Origin: an uncultured Oscillospiraceae bacterium
GTDB taxonomy: Bacteria; Bacillota; Clostridia; Oscillospirales; Oscillospiraceae
Direction: 5' to 3'
Length of the DNA: 13,951 nt
Assembly (NCBI GenBank): GCA_905205085.1
Contig: CAJLCG010000060.1
Span: forward strand, 1-13,951
Positions 1 through 9,434 of the stretch are shown here, in pieces (the first letter of the stretch is position 1; every line of letters begins with the position of its first letter). The notes beneath the pieces were generated by a model. It saw nothing but the letters and a program-made list of their open reading frames with translations. It was not told the DNA's origin and did no database searches. Both the position numbers and the translations under genes were made by a program.

Positions 1-858
1 AAAGCGGCCGGTAATATGCTCTGTACCAATACAGTTGATAAATGCCTTGGGGTCGGCCTGATGGACCATGCGGGTCATTTTCCGCACCTCGCCCACATAG
101 ACCACCGTGTAGATCAGAACACAGCGCTCGCCGTTATAAAGCCCCACACCCTCCACCAAGGTTGCGGTATGGTGCAGGTCCTGGATCTGAGCACACACGC
201 CGCCAGCGCTTTCCCGTCCGGTGACGATGAGCACCGTAACCTGGGTGCTGTCCGGGTCCATGACGCGTACGACCTGGGTAGAGGCAAACTGGAAGATAAT
301 GGAGTAAAGGGCGGAATCCCAGCCAAACAGGGCTCCCGCAATGATCAGCATGACCACATTGCCCGCCAAAATGTAGTTCCAGGTACTCACATTCCACCGC
401 TCCATCAGCGGAATGGCAATGAAGTCGGTGCCGCCGCTGGTAATGCGGACATAGAGGCAAATACCAATGGATACGCCGTTAATGAGTCCGCCGAACACTG
501 CCACCAGCAGAGGGTCCTCCGTAATGGGGAAGGAGGGCACCAAGTCGGTAAAAATACTGGTAAGTACAATGACAAAGCAGGACCAAAGAGTGAATCGCTT
601 GCCCACATACTTCAGACAGAACAGGGCAGGCAGGGCATTGATGGCAATATTAATGGGGCCAAAGGGCAGTTCTACCCCGGCAAATTCCCAGGCACATCGC
701 ATGATCAGGCGGGTCAGTCCGGTAAATCCTCCGGGAAACAGATCGCCCGCCTGGACAAAGCTGTTGAGGTTAATTGCTACGATCAGTGCAGAAATGGTGG
801 AAATGATCAGTCGGGCAACCACCGATTCTGCCAGATCCCGCTTTTTTCCCTGATTCAC
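1..858 (-). CDS. YitT-family membrane protein (DUF161 + DUF2179), 3' end cut by window edge
   Basis: The minus-strand frame is open from a GTG at 858 to the window edge (286 codons, no stop seen). The start is supported by GAGG seven bases upstream and lies 13 bases after the pgsA stop. Residues about 13-200 hold several hydrophobic segments and the family motifs PGGFTGL (42-48) and SGGTD (141-145). Residues about 220-286 form a soluble C-terminal domain resembling DUF2179 (GLYNGERCVLIYTV, then DPKAFI), ending in ITGRF. Family members usually stop shortly after this point, so only a few residues are probably missing. The family is a set of multi-pass inner-membrane proteins of uncertain substrate; the C-terminal domain is thought to be regulatory. 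The family call is firm and the function is unknown. It is probably the last or a late gene of the recA-pgsA operon. Confidence 0.85.
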   Translation of the reverse strand, partial: MNQGKKRDLAESVVARLIISTISALIVAINLNSFVQAGDLFPGGFTGLTRLIMRCAWEFAGVELPFGPINIAINALPALFCLKYVGKRFTLWSCFVIVLTSIFTDLVPSFPITEDPLLVAVFGGLINGVSIGICLYVRITSGGTDFIAIPLMERWNVSTWNYILAGNVVMLIIAGALFGWDSALYSIIFQFASTQVVRVMDPDSTQVTVLIVTGRESAGGVCAQIQDLHHTATLVEGVGLYNGERCVLIYTVVYVGEVRKMTRMVHQADPKAFINCIGTEHITGRF

Positions 859-4573: not shown

Positions 4574-5437
4574 TTATCCGTTGATGGTTCCCTCCACCAC
4601 ACGCCAGATGCCCTGGGTGTCGGCGGTGGTCTGAATCTGCTCAAATCCGTTCTGGGCCAGGATGTTTTCCACATCGGGAGCTTGGCCGATCCCCACTTCA
4701 AAAATTAGCGTACCACCCAGCCGAATGGCATTTTTCCATTTGGCGGCGATAAAGCGGTAGAAGTCCAGGCCGTCCTCACCGCCGTCCAGGGCCATGTGGG
4801 GCTCGTAGTCCTTCACGCTGTGGTCCAGACCTTCGATATCTCCGGTGGGGATGTAGGGGGGATTGCACACGATCACGTCAAAATCCCACAGGGAAGAGGC
4901 GGGAGGCTCCATGGCGTTCACCGACAGGCAGGTCACCCGGGCGTTGAGCTCATTGCGGCGCACATTCTGCTTGCACACCCGCAGGGCGCCCTCCGACAGC
5001 TCGCCCAGTACCACCCGGCAGTCCGGGGCGTTGGCAGCAATGGCCAGACCTACACAGCCGCTTCCGGCGCACAGGTCCAGCACCCGGGCACCCTCGCCCG
5101 CCGCTCTTGCCCGCAGGATGCCCCGCTCAGCCAGCACCTCGGTATCGATGCGGGGGATGAGCACGTCGCTGGAGATATCCAGGGGCAAGCCGTAGAATTC
5201 CCACTCCCCTACGATATAGGCCACCGGCTCTCCTGCCAGGCGGCGCTGCACCAGTTCCTCTACCCGGCGCTCCATCTCTCCAGAGACATACAGGGACATG
5301 TCCCGGTAGAACTGCTCCCGGCTCTTGTCGGCCGCATAGCAGATGAGCTCCCGGGCCTCCAGCTGTCCTGACTCAATGCCCGCCTTCCGCAGGCGTGCCC
5401 GAGTGTCCAGGAATAAATTGTTATAGGTGGTAGCCAT
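4574..5437 (-). CDS. prmC: Peptide chain release factor glutamine methyltransferase PrmC
   Basis: A 287-residue SAM-dependent methyltransferase that N5-methylates the glutamine of the GGQ motif of release factors RF1 and RF2. An N-terminal helical substrate-binding domain (about 1-75) is followed by the GEWEFYGL segment (77-84) and LIPR (93-96). The SAM-binding loop DLCAGSGCVGLAIA is at 121-134, and the catalytic NPPY at 192-195 stacks against the glutamine. The ATG start is preceded by GGAAGG at seven bases. In many Firmicutes prmC sits beside prfA; here it lies between a DUF1385 gene (upstream, separated by a repeat array) and recA. The link to DUF1385 is widely conserved. Its release-factor substrates are not encoded here. 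Confidence 0.95.
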   Translation of the reverse strand: MATTYNNLFLDTRARLRKAGIESGQLEARELICYAADKSREQFYRDMSLYVSGEMERRVEELVQRRLAGEPVAYIVGEWEFYGLPLDISSDVLIPRIDTEVLAERGILRARAAGEGARVLDLCAGSGCVGLAIAANAPDCRVVLGELSEGALRVCKQNVRRNELNARVTCLSVNAMEPPASSLWDFDVIVCNPPYIPTGDIEGLDHSVKDYEPHMALDGGEDGLDFYRFIAAKWKNAIRLGGTLIFEVGIGQAPDVENILAQNGFEQIQTTADTQGIWRVVEGTING

Positions 5438-5467
5438 TGCCTCACCTTCCGTCTTTTTTCTATACTG

Positions 5468-5508
5468 AGAGGAATATATCCTCTATGCTTTCTGTTTTGG
5501 AATCGGAT
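5468..5508 (-). promoter_or_regulatory. Possible promoter of prmC with an inverted repeat over the -10
   Basis: On the minus strand TTCCAA and TATATT are separated by 18 bases. The TATATT falls within an inverted repeat, AGAGGA-(5)-TCCTCT on the plus strand at 5468-5484. The -35 is a poor match, so the promoter call is weak. If real, it would let prmC-recA be expressed independently of DUF1385, downstream of the repeat array. Confidence 0.3.
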
Positions 5509-5528
5509 TTCTGCGTTGAAGCAGAGTT

Positions 5529-5570
5529 CGCGCTTCCCATTGTCACGCTGCGGATTGGGCGACGCACGCC
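5529..5570 (-). repeat. Truncated repeat unit (core only), array A
   Basis: The 31-base core at 5530-5560 matches the four other cores of the window: GCGCTT, seven variable bases, TCACGCTGCG, three variable bases, TGGGC (plus-strand reading). The rest of a unit is missing and the next core starts 45 bases later. It is the prmC-proximal end of array A. It lies in the transcribed leader of prmC if transcription comes from DUF1385. Confidence 0.7.
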
Positions 5571-5710
5571 TTAAGCGCTTCGTCCTGTCACGCTGCGCTT
5601 TGGGCCCATAGCCGGGTCGCTTTCGCTGCGTCTCGGGCAAAAACCAGTCCCGCTGCGCGGGCCTTGGGTTTTCACCCTCGCTGCGCTCCAAGCTCCCCTA
5701 TGGGCCTAAG
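5571..5710 (-). repeat. Type II repeat unit, array A
   Basis: A unit of about 140 bases with its core at 5575-5605, extended by GCCGGGTCG as in the other full units. It carries a central 33-base hairpin at 5640-5672 and the shared distal block CTCCCCTATGGGCCT. It corresponds to the unit at 8589-8740: same borders, same hairpin offset (about 70 bases), but clearly diverged inside. It contains no credible coding frame. Confidence 0.7.
5640..5672 (-). terminator. Terminator-like hairpin inside type II unit, array A
   Basis: Read on the minus strand, an outer arm AAAACC/GGTTTT encloses an inner stem CCCGC, loop GCA, GCGGG, and the 3' arm runs into five T's. It sits downstream of DUF1385 and upstream of prmC, so it could end or attenuate read-through from DUF1385. 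The internal loop between the two stems weakens the call. Confidence 0.4.
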
Positions 5711-5865
5711 CTCCGCGCTTCGCGCTGTCACGCTGCGGGCTGGGCGCATGGCCGGGTCGACAACTCCTCCGACTCCGGGCAGACCCGGCTCAGCCTCTGG
5801 CTGCCCCTGGGCTCTGCCCATCCGCTCCGGAGTCTGTCGCCCCTATGCGCCTGCCCTCCGCGCTT
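5711..5865 (-). repeat. Type I repeat unit, array A (about 94% identical to 8444-8598)
   Basis: A 155-base block bounded at both ends by CTCCGCGCTT (5711-5720 and 5856-5865). It aligns without gaps to 8444-8598 with nine differences counted by eye, four of them clustered in the variable part of the core and the other five all transitions. It holds three consecutive small hairpins: 5775-5788 (CCGGG, CAGA loop), 5791-5803 (CAGCC, TCT loop) and 5808-5820 (TGGGC, TCT loop), then the palindrome CTCCGGAG. Its end is four bases from the stop codon of the DUF1385 gene, so it begins the 3' untranslated region of that gene. Confidence 0.85.
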
Positions 5866-5869
5866 CTCC

Positions 5870-6856
5870 TTACCACGCGTCCTCGCCCTTATTCTCCGGC
5901 AGCACCAGCTCCAGGGCCTTAATGCCCACCTCAATCATGGAGTCATCCGGCTCAAAGGTGGTAAAATTCTGAAGCCACAGGCCGGGGGCCACCAAAATCC
6001 GGGTAATCGGCCCGTCGTGCCGTCCCGCCCAGCGGTTAAATTCGTAGCTGATGCCCACAATCAAGGGCAGCATAGCCAGATGGGCCAGAAAGCGCCACAC
6101 AACGTGGTGGATCGGCCAGATAGCAAAGATCACCGTGGACACCAGGATGGAGATAGCAATTACCATAAACAAAAAGCTGGTGCCGCAGCGGGGATGGTGC
6201 CGTGGCTGCTTGCGCACATTTTCCACCGTCAGAGGCAGCCCGGCCTCATAGCAGAAGATAGTCTTGTGCTCTGCGCCATGATACTGGAATACCCGGTGGA
6301 TATCCTTCATATGGGAGCAAAGTGCCAGATATCCAATAAAAATGATAATTTTCAGCAAGCTTTCTGCCACATTGCGCACCAACATAGAGTCGGTAAACAG
6401 GGTCACCGCAGTGCCCAGCAGGGTGGGCAAAAGGAAAAACAGGCCGATGGACATGCCGATGCCCAGCACCACCGCCACCATAATAAAGAAAGATGCTGCC
6501 TTCTCACTGCCCAGCTTTTTTTCCAGCCAAAGCTCAAACTTGGAAGGCTCCTCCTCCTGTGCATCCTCGTCCTCGGGATAAAACTCGGCGGAATACATCA
6601 GCGCCTTTACGCCCTCCACCATGGAGGCCAAAAAGGTCACCACGCCCCGCACAAGAGGCAGCCCCAGCAGGGGGTACTTGTCCTTAATGAATTTCAGTTC
6701 GCTCTCCCGAATGGCCATCTGGCCATCCGGCTGGCGCACCACAATGGCCTGCTTTTTCGGCCCGCGCATCATGATGCCCTCGATCAGCGCCTGGCCGCCG
6801 CACATGGTCTTAAAACCGCCCTTCGGGCAGGCGCAGTTTTTTTGCTCTGTTGACAT
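5870..6856 (-). CDS. DUF1385 family integral membrane protein (YqhQ-like)
   Basis: A 328-residue membrane protein of a widespread, poorly characterised Firmicutes family whose gene usually sits next to prmC, as here. Seen in the sequence: a Cys-containing N-terminus (C8, C10, C19) leading into the family signature GGQALIEGIMMRGP (20-33); four hydrophobic segments at about 122-144, 165-181, 226-248 and 252-272; QYHGAEHKT (191-199) and HPRCGTSFL (221-229), which are His/Cys-rich and look like a metal- or redox-active site; and a negatively charged cytosolic stretch at 94-104. The start is ATG with AAAGGAG about 11 bases upstream, downstream of a good promoter. The stop codon is followed directly by repeat array A. 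The function is unknown; the metal site is an inference from residue pattern only. Confidence 0.9.
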   Translation of the reverse strand: MSTEQKNCACPKGGFKTMCGGQALIEGIMMRGPKKQAIVVRQPDGQMAIRESELKFIKDKYPLLGLPLVRGVVTFLASMVEGVKALMYSAEFYPEDEDAQEEEPSKFELWLEKKLGSEKAASFFIMVAVVLGIGMSIGLFFLLPTLLGTAVTLFTDSMLVRNVAESLLKIIIFIGYLALCSHMKDIHRVFQYHGAEHKTIFCYEAGLPLTVENVRKQPRHHPRCGTSFLFMVIAISILVSTVIFAIWPIHHVVWRFLAHLAMLPLIVGISYEFNRWAGRHDGPITRILVAPGLWLQNFTTFEPDDSMIEVGIKALELVLPENKGEDAW

Positions 6857-6901
6857 GAATCTTGTTACTCCTTTTTTCCAGGGACAGGCAGACCCACAGG
6901 T

Positions 6902-6930
6902 ATTCTATCAAGTTCCCATGGGAATTGCAA
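6902..6930 (-). promoter_or_regulatory. Strong promoter of the DUF1385-prmC-recA block with a palindromic spacer
   Basis: On the minus strand TTGCAA (6930-6925) is followed by 17 bases and TAGAAT (6907-6902). The first 12 spacer bases are the perfect palindrome TTCCCATGGGAA. The same -35 and spacing occur in the tRNA-Leu promoter at the right end of the window. The promoter begins 15 bases after the stop of the upstream kinase, and transcription would start about 38 bases before the DUF1385 ATG. A repressor bound to the palindrome would block RNA polymerase; that part is inferred. Confidence 0.75.
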
Positions 6931-6939
6931 CCGAAAATT

Positions 6940-6953
6940 CGAACTTATGTTTC
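6940..6953. promoter_or_regulatory. LexA (SOS) box-like site
   Basis: CGAACTTATGTTTC matches the Bacillus LexA consensus CGAACRNRYGTTYC at 13 of 14 positions (the mismatch is T at the first R). It overlaps the last codons of the kinase gene and lies nine bases upstream of the -35 of the promoter that heads the block containing recA. The consensus is established; binding here is a prediction, and a chance match in 14 kb is not negligible. Confidence 0.4.
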
Positions 6954-8372
6954 AATCGGCAGACGGACCGTCACCAGACATCCTCCGCCCTCGGCATTTC
7001 CAATGTCCAGGGTTCCCTCATGGCGGGTGACGATCTCCTCACACACGGCCAGTCCGATGCCGGAACCTCTGGCCTTGGAGCTTCCCTTATAGAACTTGTA
7101 TTTTACGTGAGGCAGCTCCTCCTCCGGGATACCGGGGCCATAGTCCCGGATGCGGATGACCGCTGACTCCTCCTCTTGGGCAATGGATACGTCGATGCGT
7201 TTGCCCGAACCGCCGTGCTTGCCCGCGTTGTCCAGCAAGTTGCAGAACACCTGGCGCAGCCGCTCCGGGTCACCGCTGATGGGCACTGCCTCCTCCGGGC
7301 AGTCCTGGTAGGTCAGCTCAATGCCCTCACGGCGGAAGAACTCCCGGTAGGTATACACCGCGTCCTCCAGCTCCGCCTTCAAATCCAGCGGCTCCACCGA
7401 CAGGGTAAAGCGTCCGTCCGACATACGTGAGAACTCCAGCAGCTCCTCCACCATGTTGGTCAGCCGCCGGGCCTCGGAGACGATGATGTCCATGCCCTTG
7501 CGCACATCCTTGGGGTCCCGCAGCTCGCCGCTCTGGATGGTCTCGGCCCAGCCGGTAATGGCGGTCAGGGGTGTGCGCAGCTCATGGGAGACGGAGGAGA
7601 TAAACTCCGACTGAGTCTTCTCCGACTGCTTGATTTTCAGGGACATGTCGTTGATGGTGTCGGTCAGTTCCCCGATCTCATCATCAAATTTCTTTTCAAT
7701 CTGTACACCATAGCTGCCGTCGGCAATGAGCCGGGCGGTTTCCGTAATGCTGGCTAGGGGCTCCACAATGGAGCGGACAAAATACAGGTTGGAGAAATAC
7801 ACCAGGGCCAAAATCACAGCGCCCAACAGACAGGCCAAGGCTACTGACAGGAAAAACTGCCAATCAATAGCCACCAGTGAGGTAACGTACCGCACGATAG
7901 TTACGGTCTGCCCATGGTAGACCACTGGAGCGGAGGCGGCCACGATCCGCTCTCCGGTGTGGGGGTCCGTCCCCATCCACGCTTTAGACTCCTGATTGAC
8001 CAGTGCGCTCTGAATATCCGGTGTGCCCGGCGTAGTACCGGCCGCCAAATCATTGCTGGAGTACTGCACCGCCCCGGTGGTATCCAGGAATTGCAGTTCC
8101 AGCTTGGTCTTATTCTCAAACTCCTGCACCGCACTTTGCGCATTGGTCCAATACTGACTGCGGGTATAGGAGGCAAATCCCCGGGCCCGGTCCTCCGCCT
8201 GGCGCTGGAGATCGTTCATGGTGGTGGTATAGTAGTAACTCCACATGGCCGCGGCAAAGGTGCCCAAAGCCATGGCCAGCACCAACAGTACCACGCCTAC
8301 GCTGTTAATGAGCCAGCGCCGCCGGATACCTCGAATTTTCACTTTATCCGTTACAACGACCTTCTTGGCCAT
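6945..8372 (-). CDS. HAMP-type sensor histidine kinase
   Basis: A 475-residue membrane kinase. A cytosolic basic N-terminus is followed by TM1 (about 22-45), an extracytoplasmic sensor of about 120 residues (50-168) and TM2 (about 172-195). A HAMP linker (196-250; SIVEPLASITETARLIADG) leads to the HisKA domain with phosphoacceptor H263 (SSVSHELRTPLTAI). The ATPase domain has the N-box LLDNAGKH (N382), G1 RDYGPGIP (D410) and G2 GSGIGLAV (436-443). All catalytic motifs are intact. The ATG start has GGAGG seven bases upstream. It is the likely partner of the response regulator at 8745-9434 but is separated from it by a 372-base gap filled by a repeat array. The signal is unknown; the lipoprotein of the same block may take part in sensing. 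Confidence 0.92.
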   Translation of the reverse strand: MAKKVVVTDKVKIRGIRRRWLINSVGVVLLVLAMALGTFAAAMWSYYYTTTMNDLQRQAEDRARGFASYTRSQYWTNAQSAVQEFENKTKLELQFLDTTGAVQYSSNDLAAGTTPGTPDIQSALVNQESKAWMGTDPHTGERIVAASAPVVYHGQTVTIVRYVTSLVAIDWQFFLSVALACLLGAVILALVYFSNLYFVRSIVEPLASITETARLIADGSYGVQIEKKFDDEIGELTDTINDMSLKIKQSEKTQSEFISSVSHELRTPLTAITGWAETIQSGELRDPKDVRKGMDIIVSEARRLTNMVEELLEFSRMSDGRFTLSVEPLDLKAELEDAVYTYREFFRREGIELTYQDCPEEAVPISGDPERLRQVFCNLLDNAGKHGGSGKRIDVSIAQEEESAVIRIRDYGPGIPEEELPHVKYKFYKGSSKARGSGIGLAVCEEIVTRHEGTLDIGNAEGGGCLVTVRLPIET

Positions 8373-8443
8373 TTGAGCACCTCCCCTCCCGGGTTATGGG
8401 TTTTTCCGTAATGATTTGATTATGGATTGTCTGATACGGTAGT

Positions 8444-8598
8444 CTCCGCGCTTTGCACGATCACGCTGCGGGCTGGGCGCATGGCCGGGTTGACAACTTC
8501 TCCGACTTCGGGCAGACCCGGTTCAGCCTCTGGCTACCCCTGGGCTCTGCCCATCCGCTCCGGAGTCTGTCGCCCCTATGCGCCTGCCCTCCGCGCTT
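8444..8598 (-). repeat. Type I repeat unit, array B
   Basis: The second copy of the unit at 5711-5865: 155 positions, no gaps, nine differences. Both ends carry CTCCGCGCTT (8444-8453, 8589-8598); the distal one is shared with the next unit, giving a 145-base period. The core is at 8448-8478. Some differences fall in hairpin arms, and one becomes a U-G pair in the transcript (second hairpin), which suggests tolerance rather than loss of folding. About 70 bases of unremarkable A/T-richer leader (8373-8443) lie between this unit and the kinase start. Confidence 0.85.
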
Positions 8599-8740
8599 CG
8601 GCCTGTCACGCTGCGGATTGGGCGCGCGGCCGGGTCGATAACTCCGCTGTCTCCGCCGCCAAACAGAAGGCCTCTGGGCCTTCTTGGTTTGCCGGCATCC
8701 GCTCTGTCGTTATCTCCCCTGCGCGCCTATCCTCGCGCTT
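8589..8740 (-). repeat. Type II repeat unit, array B
   Basis: A unit of about 142 bases plus a border. Its core is at 8593-8623, followed by GCCGGGTCGA, a hairpin at 8659-8691 and the distal block CTCCCCTGCGCGCCTAT. It ends four bases from the stop codon of the response regulator (TAA then GGAGAAGCGCG on the minus strand), the same junction found after the DUF1385 stop. It pairs with the type II unit at 5571-5710, but the order of type I and type II units relative to the preceding gene is reversed. Confidence 0.7.
8659..8691 (-). other. Long imperfect hairpin inside type II unit, array B
   Basis: An eight-base perfect stem, AGAAGGCC and GGCCTTCT with a four-base loop (TCTG on plus, CAGA on minus), is extended by an AAA/TTT arm after two bulges. 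It lies at the same distance (70 bases) from the unit start as the hairpin 5640-5672 in the other array. The minus-strand 3' side ends in GTTTGG, a poor T-run, so it looks structural more than terminating and would let the kinase gene be transcribed. Confidence 0.55.
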
Positions 8741-8744
8741 CTCC

Positions 8745-9434
8745 TTAACTCCCCCACTTATATCCATAGCCCCACACGGTATTCACATAGGTGGGCTTGG
8801 TGGGATTGTCTTCGATTTTGATGCGCAGGCGGCGGATATTTACATCCACAATTTTCAGCTCGCCAAAGTAGTCCTTGCCCCATACCGCATCCAGGATTTC
8901 CTCTCGGGACAGGGCCTTCCCCGGGTTTTCCATAAACAGCTTCACAATGCCGTACTCCACCTGGGTCAGCTTTACCCGCTGTCCGTTCTTCTCCAACGTG
9001 CGGTTGCGGGTATTCAGCAGGAAGGGGGGCTGGCTGATCTCGTCGGGCGAGGTCTCCTCCTCTTCTCCGCCGGTGCGGCGGAATAGGGCGTCCACCCGGG
9101 CGGTCAACTCCGCCGGCGAGAAGGGCTTGGTCACATAGTCGTCTGCACCGGTCATCAGGCCGGTCACCTTGTCCATCTCCTGGGTCCGGGCGGTGAGCAT
9201 GATAATGCCAATTTTGTTGTCCATGGCCCGGATGCGGCGGCAGACCTCAAAGCCATCAATGCCAGGCAGCATAATGTCCAGCAGGGCCACCTTAATGCCC
9301 GGATTTTCCTTCAGGGCCACCAGAGCGTCCTCGCCGGTGGCGGCCTCAATGGTCTGATATCCCGCCCGCTTCAGGTTGATGACCACGAAGCTGCGAATGT
9401 TCTCTTCATCTTCCAGCACAAGAACTTTTCTCAT
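8745..9434 (-). CDS. OmpR/PhoB-family response regulator
   Basis: A 229-residue two-domain regulator. The receiver domain has acidic pocket D9/E10, phosphoacceptor D53 (LLDIMLPGIDG), T81, Y100 and K103 (DDYVTKPF). The winged-helix domain (about 130-229) contains LTQVEYGIVKLFMENPGKALSR, the recognition region VDVNIRRLRIKIED and the C-terminal hairpin YVNTVWGYGYKW. The ATG at 9434 is preceded by GGAAGG at six bases and gives the canonical N-terminus MRKVLVLEDEE; the frame stays open to 9527, but that overlaps the lipoprotein gene and is not family sequence. It follows the lipoprotein gene by 26 bases and is followed by repeat array B and then the kinase. It is expected to be phosphorylated by that kinase and to bind direct repeats upstream of its targets. 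Confidence 0.94.
   Translation of the reverse strand: MRKVLVLEDEENIRSFVVINLKRAGYQTIEAATGEDALVALKENPGIKVALLDIMLPGIDGFEVCRRIRAMDNKIGIIMLTARTQEMDKVTGLMTGADDYVTKPFSPAELTARVDALFRRTGGEEEETSPDEISQPPFLLNTRNRTLEKNGQRVKLTQVEYGIVKLFMENPGKALSREEILDAVWGKDYFGELKIVDVNIRRLRIKIEDNPTKPTYVNTVWGYGYKWGS

What the first reader, a model, noticed from the sequence alone, without database searches (positions are those of the whole stretch)
5529..8740. A modular, structured intergenic repeat family with five units in two arrays
Five cores of 31 bases (starting at 5530, 5575, 5715, 8448, 8593) keep GCGCTT, TCACGCTGCG and TGGGC at fixed spacing; the bases between vary. Four cores continue into full units of about 140-145 bases that tile head to tail with a CTCCGCGCTT-like border. 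There are two unit types: type I is about 94% identical between arrays, type II is diverged. No open frame is preserved and no transposase is near. I do not recognise it as a described family. It may be a mobile miniature element, a REP-like family or a structured RNA module.
Basis: seen in the sequence. Interest (0 to 1): 0.7.

Follow-up and report, generated by a model that had tools for sequence, protein, structure and literature searches.

The report
Modular hairpin repeats at stop codons
The window carries two small tandem arrays of an apparently undescribed family of hairpin-shaped DNA repeats, found in many genomes of one family of gut bacteria, that tend to sit in one orientation right at the end of protein-coding genes, which suggests mobile DNA that docks at gene ends.

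Summary
In detail: five cores lie exactly at the stated positions. Read along the flanking genes (window minus strand), a unit is left border GAAGCGC(G)GAG, a 130-140 nt imperfect hairpin with an exchangeable interior, right border GCAGCGTGACA. Four full units and one 45-nt remnant form two arrays. A covariance model hit 52 of 400 genomes of the bacterial family sampled; Rfam has nothing. The outer stem covaries. New: (1) Around 63 countable arrays found with the model, 22 have a same-strand frame's stop codon 0..+6 nt before the left border, 30 at -3..+6, 39 at -16..+6; the opposite-strand control at the right end gives 0 of 63. (2) Orthologous sites are filled, empty, or hold other interiors. 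(3) Arrays often end in a 3'-truncated copy; the mirror case was not seen (33 to 0). (4) In well-paired columns A-C mismatches are about as common as G-T, a weak hint of a DNA-level palindrome. Best reading: a new family of non-autonomous mobile palindromes, resembling BOX, REP and NIME repeats; mobilising enzyme unknown.

The parts
5728..5866 (-). Array 1, unit 1 (type A): left border at 5860-5866, 3 nt after the DUF1385 stop codon; right border GCAGCGTGACA at 5726-5736
   Evidence: R1 130.1 bits (training sequence); borders; distance to stop; hairpin z -5.8 on +, -4.6 on -
5588..5721 (-). Array 1, unit 2 (GGCCCAT outer-stem subtype)
   Evidence: R1 113.9 bits (training sequence); borders
5541..5581 (-). 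Array 1, remnant unit with both borders and most of the body missing
   Evidence: borders 5575-5581 and 5541-5551; not found by R1
5529..5536 (-). Array 1, trailing left border only (3'-truncated copy)
   Evidence: GAAGCGCG followed by unrelated AACTCTG
8606..8741 (-). Array 2, unit 1 (type A'): left border 8735-8741, 3 nt after the response-regulator stop codon
   Evidence: R1 129.4 bits (training sequence)
8461..8599 (-). Array 2, unit 2 (type A), 93.6% identical to array 1 unit 1
   Evidence: R1 134.1 bits (training sequence)
8444..8454 (-). Array 2, trailing left border only (AAAGCGCGGAG)
5870..6856 (-). gene upstream of array 1 in transcription order: DUF1385 family
   Evidence: PF07136, E 7.5e-90
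4574..5437 (-). gene downstream of array 1: prmC-like methyltransferase
   Evidence: PF17827 PrmC_N
8745..9431 (-). gene upstream of array 2: response regulator
   Evidence: PF00072, PF00486
6945..8372 (-). gene downstream of array 2: histidine kinase
   Evidence: PF02518, PF00512, PF00672

Best explanation
The arrays belong to a new family of non-autonomous mobile DNA palindromes of Oscillospiraceae and relatives. Shown by sequence: a unit is a polar cassette (left border GAAGCGC(G)GAG, covarying outer stem with a bulged A facing CA, exchangeable inner hairpin, right border GCAGCGTGACA); many first units stand in sense orientation at the stop codon of an upstream gene; the same site is empty, filled, or filled with another interior in related genomes; arrays often end in 3'-truncated copies. 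Inferred: units insert at the 3' ends of genes with help from an enzyme that recognises the hairpin foot; because a right border plus spacer resembles the docking site, further units join head to tail; interiors are exchanged by recombination between outer stems, and borders recombine to leave solo borders. Transcribed hairpins probably affect the mRNAs as a by-product.
For: Dispersed copies in many genomes. Site occupancy: at DUF1385|prmC the window and L183 (type A), L189 (type C) and L204 (two other units) start 3-4 nt after the same stop codon, L190 keeps only a left border, and in ten of the 30 loci read the spacer is 25-77 nt with no unit. At groES|groEL, L244 lacks the unit that L245 has, though both are 97% identical to the groEL query, while L243 and L246 carry another interior inside the same outer stem, spacer and tail. 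Docking: 22, 30 or 39 of 63 by window, control 0 of 63. In 25 of 36 arrays tested (35 of the 39 docked ones plus one undocked) the next gene is on the same strand; median distance for the 36 is 102 nt. Some units follow phage capsid, head-tail connector and tail-tube genes. One-sided truncation 33:0. Tails resemble the start of their own unit (7.7 of 14 positions) more than those of other arrays (5.5), 0/5000 permutations, 42 rows. A-C about as common as G-T in well-paired columns: 13 and 15 of 720, 6 and 7 of 663.
Against: No enzyme was found: PF01797 has no match in 5 of 15 carriers and none of 11 Y1 loci read is flanked by units on both sides. No target-site duplication was seen by eye. No insertion was caught between near-identical strains; L244 may be a loss (its spacer holds GCGAGCGCG, possibly a remnant). 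Over all 24 outer pairs of A1, G-T outnumbers A-C 52 to 8, or 17 to 8 without one fixed border pair, which favours the transcribed strand. An earlier, noisier control found 4 of 47 right ends 0..6 nt from an opposite-strand stop. The 33:0 asymmetry may partly be selection, since deletions into the upstream gene would be lethal; the tail similarity is confounded by lineage-specific borders. 24 of 63 arrays have no stop codon in the widest window.
Confidence: 0.57

Rival explanations
1. Cis-acting RNA elements: intercistronic or 3'-UTR hairpins kept by selection next to stop codons to protect the upstream message or tune stoichiometry, with family resemblance due to ancient spread.
For: Sense orientation at stop codons. 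Among 28 upstream proteins that I picked by hand from 63 are tpiA, rpsO, relA, grpE, HU, rpsJ, pgk, groES, groEL, dnaK, rplA and EF-G. Covariation and conserved bulges. G-T 52 against A-C 8 over all 24 pairs of A1 (17 against 8 without one fixed pair).
Against: In the well-paired columns G-T is no commoner than A-C (15:13 and 7:6), unlike RNA helices in general (recalled; my control was only six tRNAs, 3 against 0). A close relative does without the unit. Some units follow phage structural genes.
Confidence: 0.28
2. A REP/BIME family mobilised by a RAYT (REP-associated tyrosine transposase).
For: Palindromes, intergenic arrays, compensatory changes; GTAG REPs often supply stop codons (PMC3733652, passage seen), and here too some frames end at a TAG inside the unit.
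Against: Units are 130-140 nt, not 20-40; no GTAG/CGTC tag at the foot; PF01797 has no match at E 0.001 in carriers G002, G005, G034, G152, G276; of 11 Y1 loci read one has a unit about 1 kb away and none is flanked by two.
Confidence: 0.05
3. Transcription terminators or attenuators placed after genes.
For: Stable hairpins directly after stop codons.
Against: No T-run stood out after the units printed (by eye; no terminator scan was run); in 25 of 36 arrays the next gene is on the same strand.
Confidence: 0.04
4. attC-like recombination sites of an integron-type system: foldable imperfect hairpins in head-to-tail arrays after stop codons.
For: Architecture: hairpin with extrahelical bases, array polarity, position after a stop codon.
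Against: No integrase among the 12 window proteins scanned; no gene lies between units; attC core letters were not searched for.
Confidence: 0.02

Closest known systems
BOX elements of Streptococcus (PMC3049150, passages seen)
   Same: modular, stem-loop, intergenic, number and kind of modules vary; of 58 coding sequences overlapping a BOX, 36 take their stop codon from it
   Different: other host; BOX is boxA-(boxB)n-boxC with proposed similarity to an IS terminus, while here whole hairpins repeat head to tail between fixed borders and no parent IS is known; sequences were not aligned
REP / BIME with RAYT (PMC3733652, PMC2817692, passages seen)
   Same: palindromes with complementary changes, mosaic clusters, closeness to ORF ends
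   Different: several times longer, no GTAG or CGTC tag, no cognate Y1 transposase found
NIME of Neisseria (70-200 bp composite elements, mentioned in PMC3049150; dRS3 detail recalled)
   Same: short conserved borders alternating with variable bodies in intergenic arrays
   Different: borders here are not a 20-bp inverted repeat (recalled feature) and arrays dock at stop codons
MITEs
   Same: short, no known coding capacity, strongly base-paired, dispersed
   Different: terminal pairing of only 4 bp, no target-site duplication seen, GC-rich (67-68%), no parent transposase known

Membership tests
REP (RAYT-associated) | GTAG/GTGG (or CGTC) head at the foot of a 20-40 nt palindrome | tested here: not met
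   foot is GAAGCGC(G)GAG, unit 130-140 nt
REP (RAYT-associated) | a Y1 transposase gene flanked by two inverted copies | tested here: not met
   11 Y1 loci read: 1 with one unit nearby, 0 flanked on both sides; not every Y1 match was fetched
REP (RAYT-associated) | presence in carriers tracks the transposase | tested here: not met
   no PF01797 match at E 0.001 in 5 of 15 carriers tested
MITE | terminal inverted repeats | tested here: inconclusive
   ends can form 4 bp including a G-T, GCGC/GCGT
MITE | target-site duplication | tested here: inconclusive
   none seen by eye at DUF1385|prmC and groES|groEL; an 8-11 nt left border often recurs at the array end
MITE | ends shared with a resident insertion sequence | not tested
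   no IS library was compared
BOX | boxA, boxB, boxC sequence modules | not tested
   no BOX sequence was aligned
NIME | dRS3 inverted repeats between RS units | not tested
   feature recalled; no search was made
Known RNA family (Rfam 15) | score above the gathering threshold | tested here: not met
   0 matches at gathering in the window and 0 at E up to 5 over 5430-8760
Structured RNA in general | covarying pairs | tested here: met
   100 two-sided cells against 32.5 shuffled; 119 against 38.4; two other measures did not exceed shuffles (47/500 and 430/500). Equally expected of DNA palindromes
Structured RNA in general | G-U tolerated far more than A-C on the transcribed strand | tested here: inconclusive
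   15:13 and 7:6 in well-paired columns, but 52:8 over all 24 pairs of A1, 17:8 without one fixed border pair
Integron attC | conserved RYYYAAC / GTTRRRY cores and an IntI integrase | not tested
   motif recalled, not searched; no integrase among the 12 window proteins scanned

The most novel reading that the evidence does not exclude
A bacterial mobile palindrome with a dedicated stop-codon docking route: a free 3' end at the end of a translated gene primes templated copying of the unit from its left border, copying can run past one unit length, and it aborts at variable points, which leaves the polar arrays and 3'-truncated tails seen here (a rolling or SINE-like growth in miniature).
Probability: 0.13. 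Interest if true: 0.85.

Novelty: new variant of a known kind. Interest (0 to 1): 0.55.

Why it matters
If right, many genomes of a common gut family carry an undescribed class of small mobile DNA that marks the ends of core genes and some phage genes in one orientation. That gives a natural system to ask how an element finds gene ends, what long hairpins directly behind stop codons do to termination and mRNA decay, and which enzyme moves DNA palindromes when no RAYT is present. A covariance model for the family would also help to annotate intergenic gaps in these genomes.

Tried and rejected
REP/RAYT: rejected, see membership rows. Known RNA: no match. Plasmid or phage-borne family: no match to 5525-5870 in either annotated collection, although three IMG/VR contigs hold a core and some units follow phage genes. 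The Micromonospora locus L001 of the pattern scan is probably chance: 13.9 bits, E 0.031. 'New units always join at the stop-proximal end': not supported, since at DUF1385|prmC window and L183 share the proximal unit and differ distally. Target is any TAA/TGA/TAG: not demonstrated; some arrays follow other sequences.

Weak points of the counts., the first docking count, was noisy: 71 rows kept, 9 printed as dropped, L001/L038 skipped, some kept rows being internal AAGCG matches; 37 at 0..6 and 43 at -16..6. (82 rows, same noise) had 33 at 0..6 on the sense side and 4 of 47 in its control. I rely: 82 of the 86 model hits used (4 partial or weakest left out by hand), 69 arrays, 2 too near an edge and 4 preceded by a right border left out, 63 counted. 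Its widest window includes 9 arrays whose frame ends inside the unit, often at a TAG that the subtype carries anyway, so a chance open frame would score there; hence the 22/30/39 split. The 60 regions were picked by hand from the list; at least three (L314, L316, L317) are sites seen before. A3 is not independent of A1: it was chosen by the model, L314:2124-2260 is the same site as an A1 row (from L113), and L340 and L362 are near-copies of A1 rows. Of the 33 truncated-tail rows at least three (L038, L085, L158:4600) are not clean. Several of the 42 rows pair the tail with a wrong upstream start. In one search the script misplaced the gene end in several rows (window, L185, L195, L197, L198, L200, L206, L209) and found no prmC in three; these are not in the ten empty sites. 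27 of 300 includes a few weak matches inside genes. The chance figure printed is not used, since its set was chosen for docking.

Full report
What is there. The window is a stretch of minus-strand genes: YitT-like, CDP-alcohol phosphatidyltransferase, a radical SAM/TRAM protein, RecX, RecA, PrmC, DUF1385, histidine kinase, response regulator, an FG-GAP protein, histidine kinase, response regulator (Pfam). No transposase is among these 12. Read along the genes, the unit is GAAGCGC(G)GAG, hairpin, GCAGCGTGACA, a spacer of a few bases, then the next GAAGCGC. Array 1 (5529-5866) is a type A unit, a second subtype, a 45-nt remnant and a lone left border; array 2 (8444-8741) is unit A', unit A and a lone left border. 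Each first unit begins 3 nt after a TAA stop codon.

Structure. Single units fold better than shuffles (z -5.8, -4.6, -4.1). I aligned 37 type-A units by sequence (A1). RNAalifold predicts 29 pairs, 19 with two-sided changes. For the 24 outer pairs that I named, 94.4% of cells pair (84.0% shuffled) and 100 cells have two-sided changes (32.5 shuffled), 0/500 each; sliding the partner by 1-3 columns drops pairing to 26.6-45.4%. Two measures did not stand out: pairs with a two-sided change 12 against 9.9 (47/500) and further pair types 24 against 24.9 (430/500). A second set of 40 units, found with the model and aligned by sequence only (A3; chosen by the model and partly overlapping A1), gives 94.3% against 79.1%, 119 against 38.4, 16 pairs against 9.4, and slides at or below 40.6%. 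The first stem appears as GGAT/ATCC, GGGT/ACCC, GGGC/GCCC, GGAC/GTCC, GCTT/AAGC and GCGC/GCGC. A bulged A faces CA between the first two stems in nearly all rows.

RNA or DNA. In the 18 well-paired columns of A3, G-T and A-C cells number 15 and 13 of 720; in 18 columns of A1, 7 and 6 of 663. A sense RNA should tolerate G-U far more than A-C (general knowledge; my control of six tRNAs, 3 against 0, is too small). Against this, over all 24 outer pairs of A1 the numbers are 52 and 8, of which 35 G-T are one fixed border pair; 17 and 8 without it. I read this as a weak hint that the palindrome is kept at the DNA level, not as proof.

Distribution. The exact core occurs in 6 stretches of the genome collection (84,980 species), five of them in records named Oscillibacter, Oscillospiraceae (two), Flavonifractor plautii and an uncultured Clostridium, and one in Micromonospora that looks like chance. 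Those first five genomes all hold copies (28 matches). In the family sampled, the 160-nt unit matches 27 of 300 genomes with two candidates scored per genome, a few of the matches weak, and model R1 matches 52 of 400 with at most eight scored per genome. The right border GCAGCGTGAC is found 14, 25, 23, 13 and 51 times in G135, G213, G005, G004 and G085, against 1, 6, 6, 0 and 6 for the reversed control.

Docking at stop codons. In a first look, first units stood 0-5 nt after stop codons again and again. I then fetched 60 regions around R1 hits, picked by hand from the list without regard to flanks (a few sites had been seen before), and scored them. Of 63 countable arrays, 22 have a stop codon of a same-strand frame of at least 60 codons 0..+6 nt before the left border, 30 at -3..+6 and 39 at -16..+6. 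The same test for opposite-strand frames at the right end gives 0 of 63; an earlier noisier control gave 4 of 47. In some arrays the frame ends at a TAG inside the unit; there a chance open frame could score too. For 36 arrays (35 docked, one not) the median distance to the next gene is 102 nt, and 25 of these next genes are on the same strand. I picked 28 upstream proteins by hand out of 63: 26 have a Pfam family, among them tpiA, rpsO, relA (two), grpE, HU, rpsJ, DAHP synthase, pgk, groES, groEL, dnaK, rplA and EF-G, and phage capsid, head-tail connector and tail-tube proteins. Being hand-picked, they give no frequencies.

Turnover. At DUF1385|prmC, 366 of 400 genomes have the gene and 30 loci were read. 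G135 (87% identical over the gene) carries only type A where the window carries A, a second subtype and a remnant; G244 carries type C; G221 carries two other units; G403 keeps a bare left border; ten loci have spacers of 25-77 nt with none; others hold different sequence or could not be parsed. A gene with the same C-terminus in G002 (L066) is followed by yet another subtype. At groES|groEL, 374 of 400 genomes match and 30 loci were read: G258 and G159 share one interior, G084 has another inside the same outer stem, spacer and tail, and G214 has a 31-nt spacer with no unit. At RR|HK the window has A'-A, while G003 has C-A'.

Polarity. Among right-border/left-border junctions in the loci held at that point, 20 join two intact units, 33 have an intact unit upstream and only a 5' piece of a unit downstream, none has the reverse, and 7 have neither. 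The tail resembles the start of its own preceding unit more than those of other arrays (7.7 against 5.5 of 14 positions, 0 of 5000 permutations, 42 rows, some mispaired); lineage-specific borders explain part of this.

Mechanism. Shown: cassette anatomy, docking, orientation, presence/absence, interior exchange, polarity. Inferred: insertion by an enzyme acting in trans, growth at the right border, exchange by recombination, effects on mRNA. A Y1 transposase is not the answer in general: no match at E 0.001 in 5 of 15 carriers, and none of 11 Y1 loci read is flanked by units on both sides.

Literature. Eight full-text searches found no description of this family. From passages only: GTAG REPs often supply a TAG stop (PMC3733652), BOX elements encode the stop codon of 36 of 58 overlapping genes (PMC3049150), and RAYT genes are always flanked by two inverted REPs (PMC2817692). 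So closeness to stop codons has precedents; in what I saw I found none with this orientation bias and head-to-tail hairpin arrays.

Verdict. A real, apparently undescribed family; a new variant of a known kind (small mobile intergenic palindromes). The stop-codon docking and the one-sided tails are what a specialist would find surprising.

Noticed in passing
L068, L074, L009 (beside arrays); L205, L209 (DUF1385|prmC): A second palindromic repeat of the type GTAGGG(G)CGG...CCGCCC(CTAC), with a GTAG foot as in REPs, lies next to arrays or at the same intergenic site.
   Followed up: no
L185 (DUF1385|prmC) and L257 (groES|groEL), both from genome G349: Another hairpin-like repeat (GGGAATCC... / ...GGGGGGATTC) stands right after the stop codon at both sites.
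   Followed up: no
L133, L098, L103; IMG/VR contigs L007-L009: Units follow phage structural genes or lie in virus contigs, so prophages may carry the family between hosts.
   Followed up: partly
L073, L069, L165, L088: Some arrays without a stop codon in front follow what looks by eye like a CIRCE repeat, T-box sequence or tRNA gene.
   Followed up: no
L018, L020 (Flavonifractor plautii draft): Runs of N lie inside or beside units, so copy numbers in draft genomes are probably underestimates.
   Followed up: no
L251 (groES|groEL of G318), L126, L158:4600: Units that have lost nearly the whole hairpin but keep both borders.
   Followed up: partly
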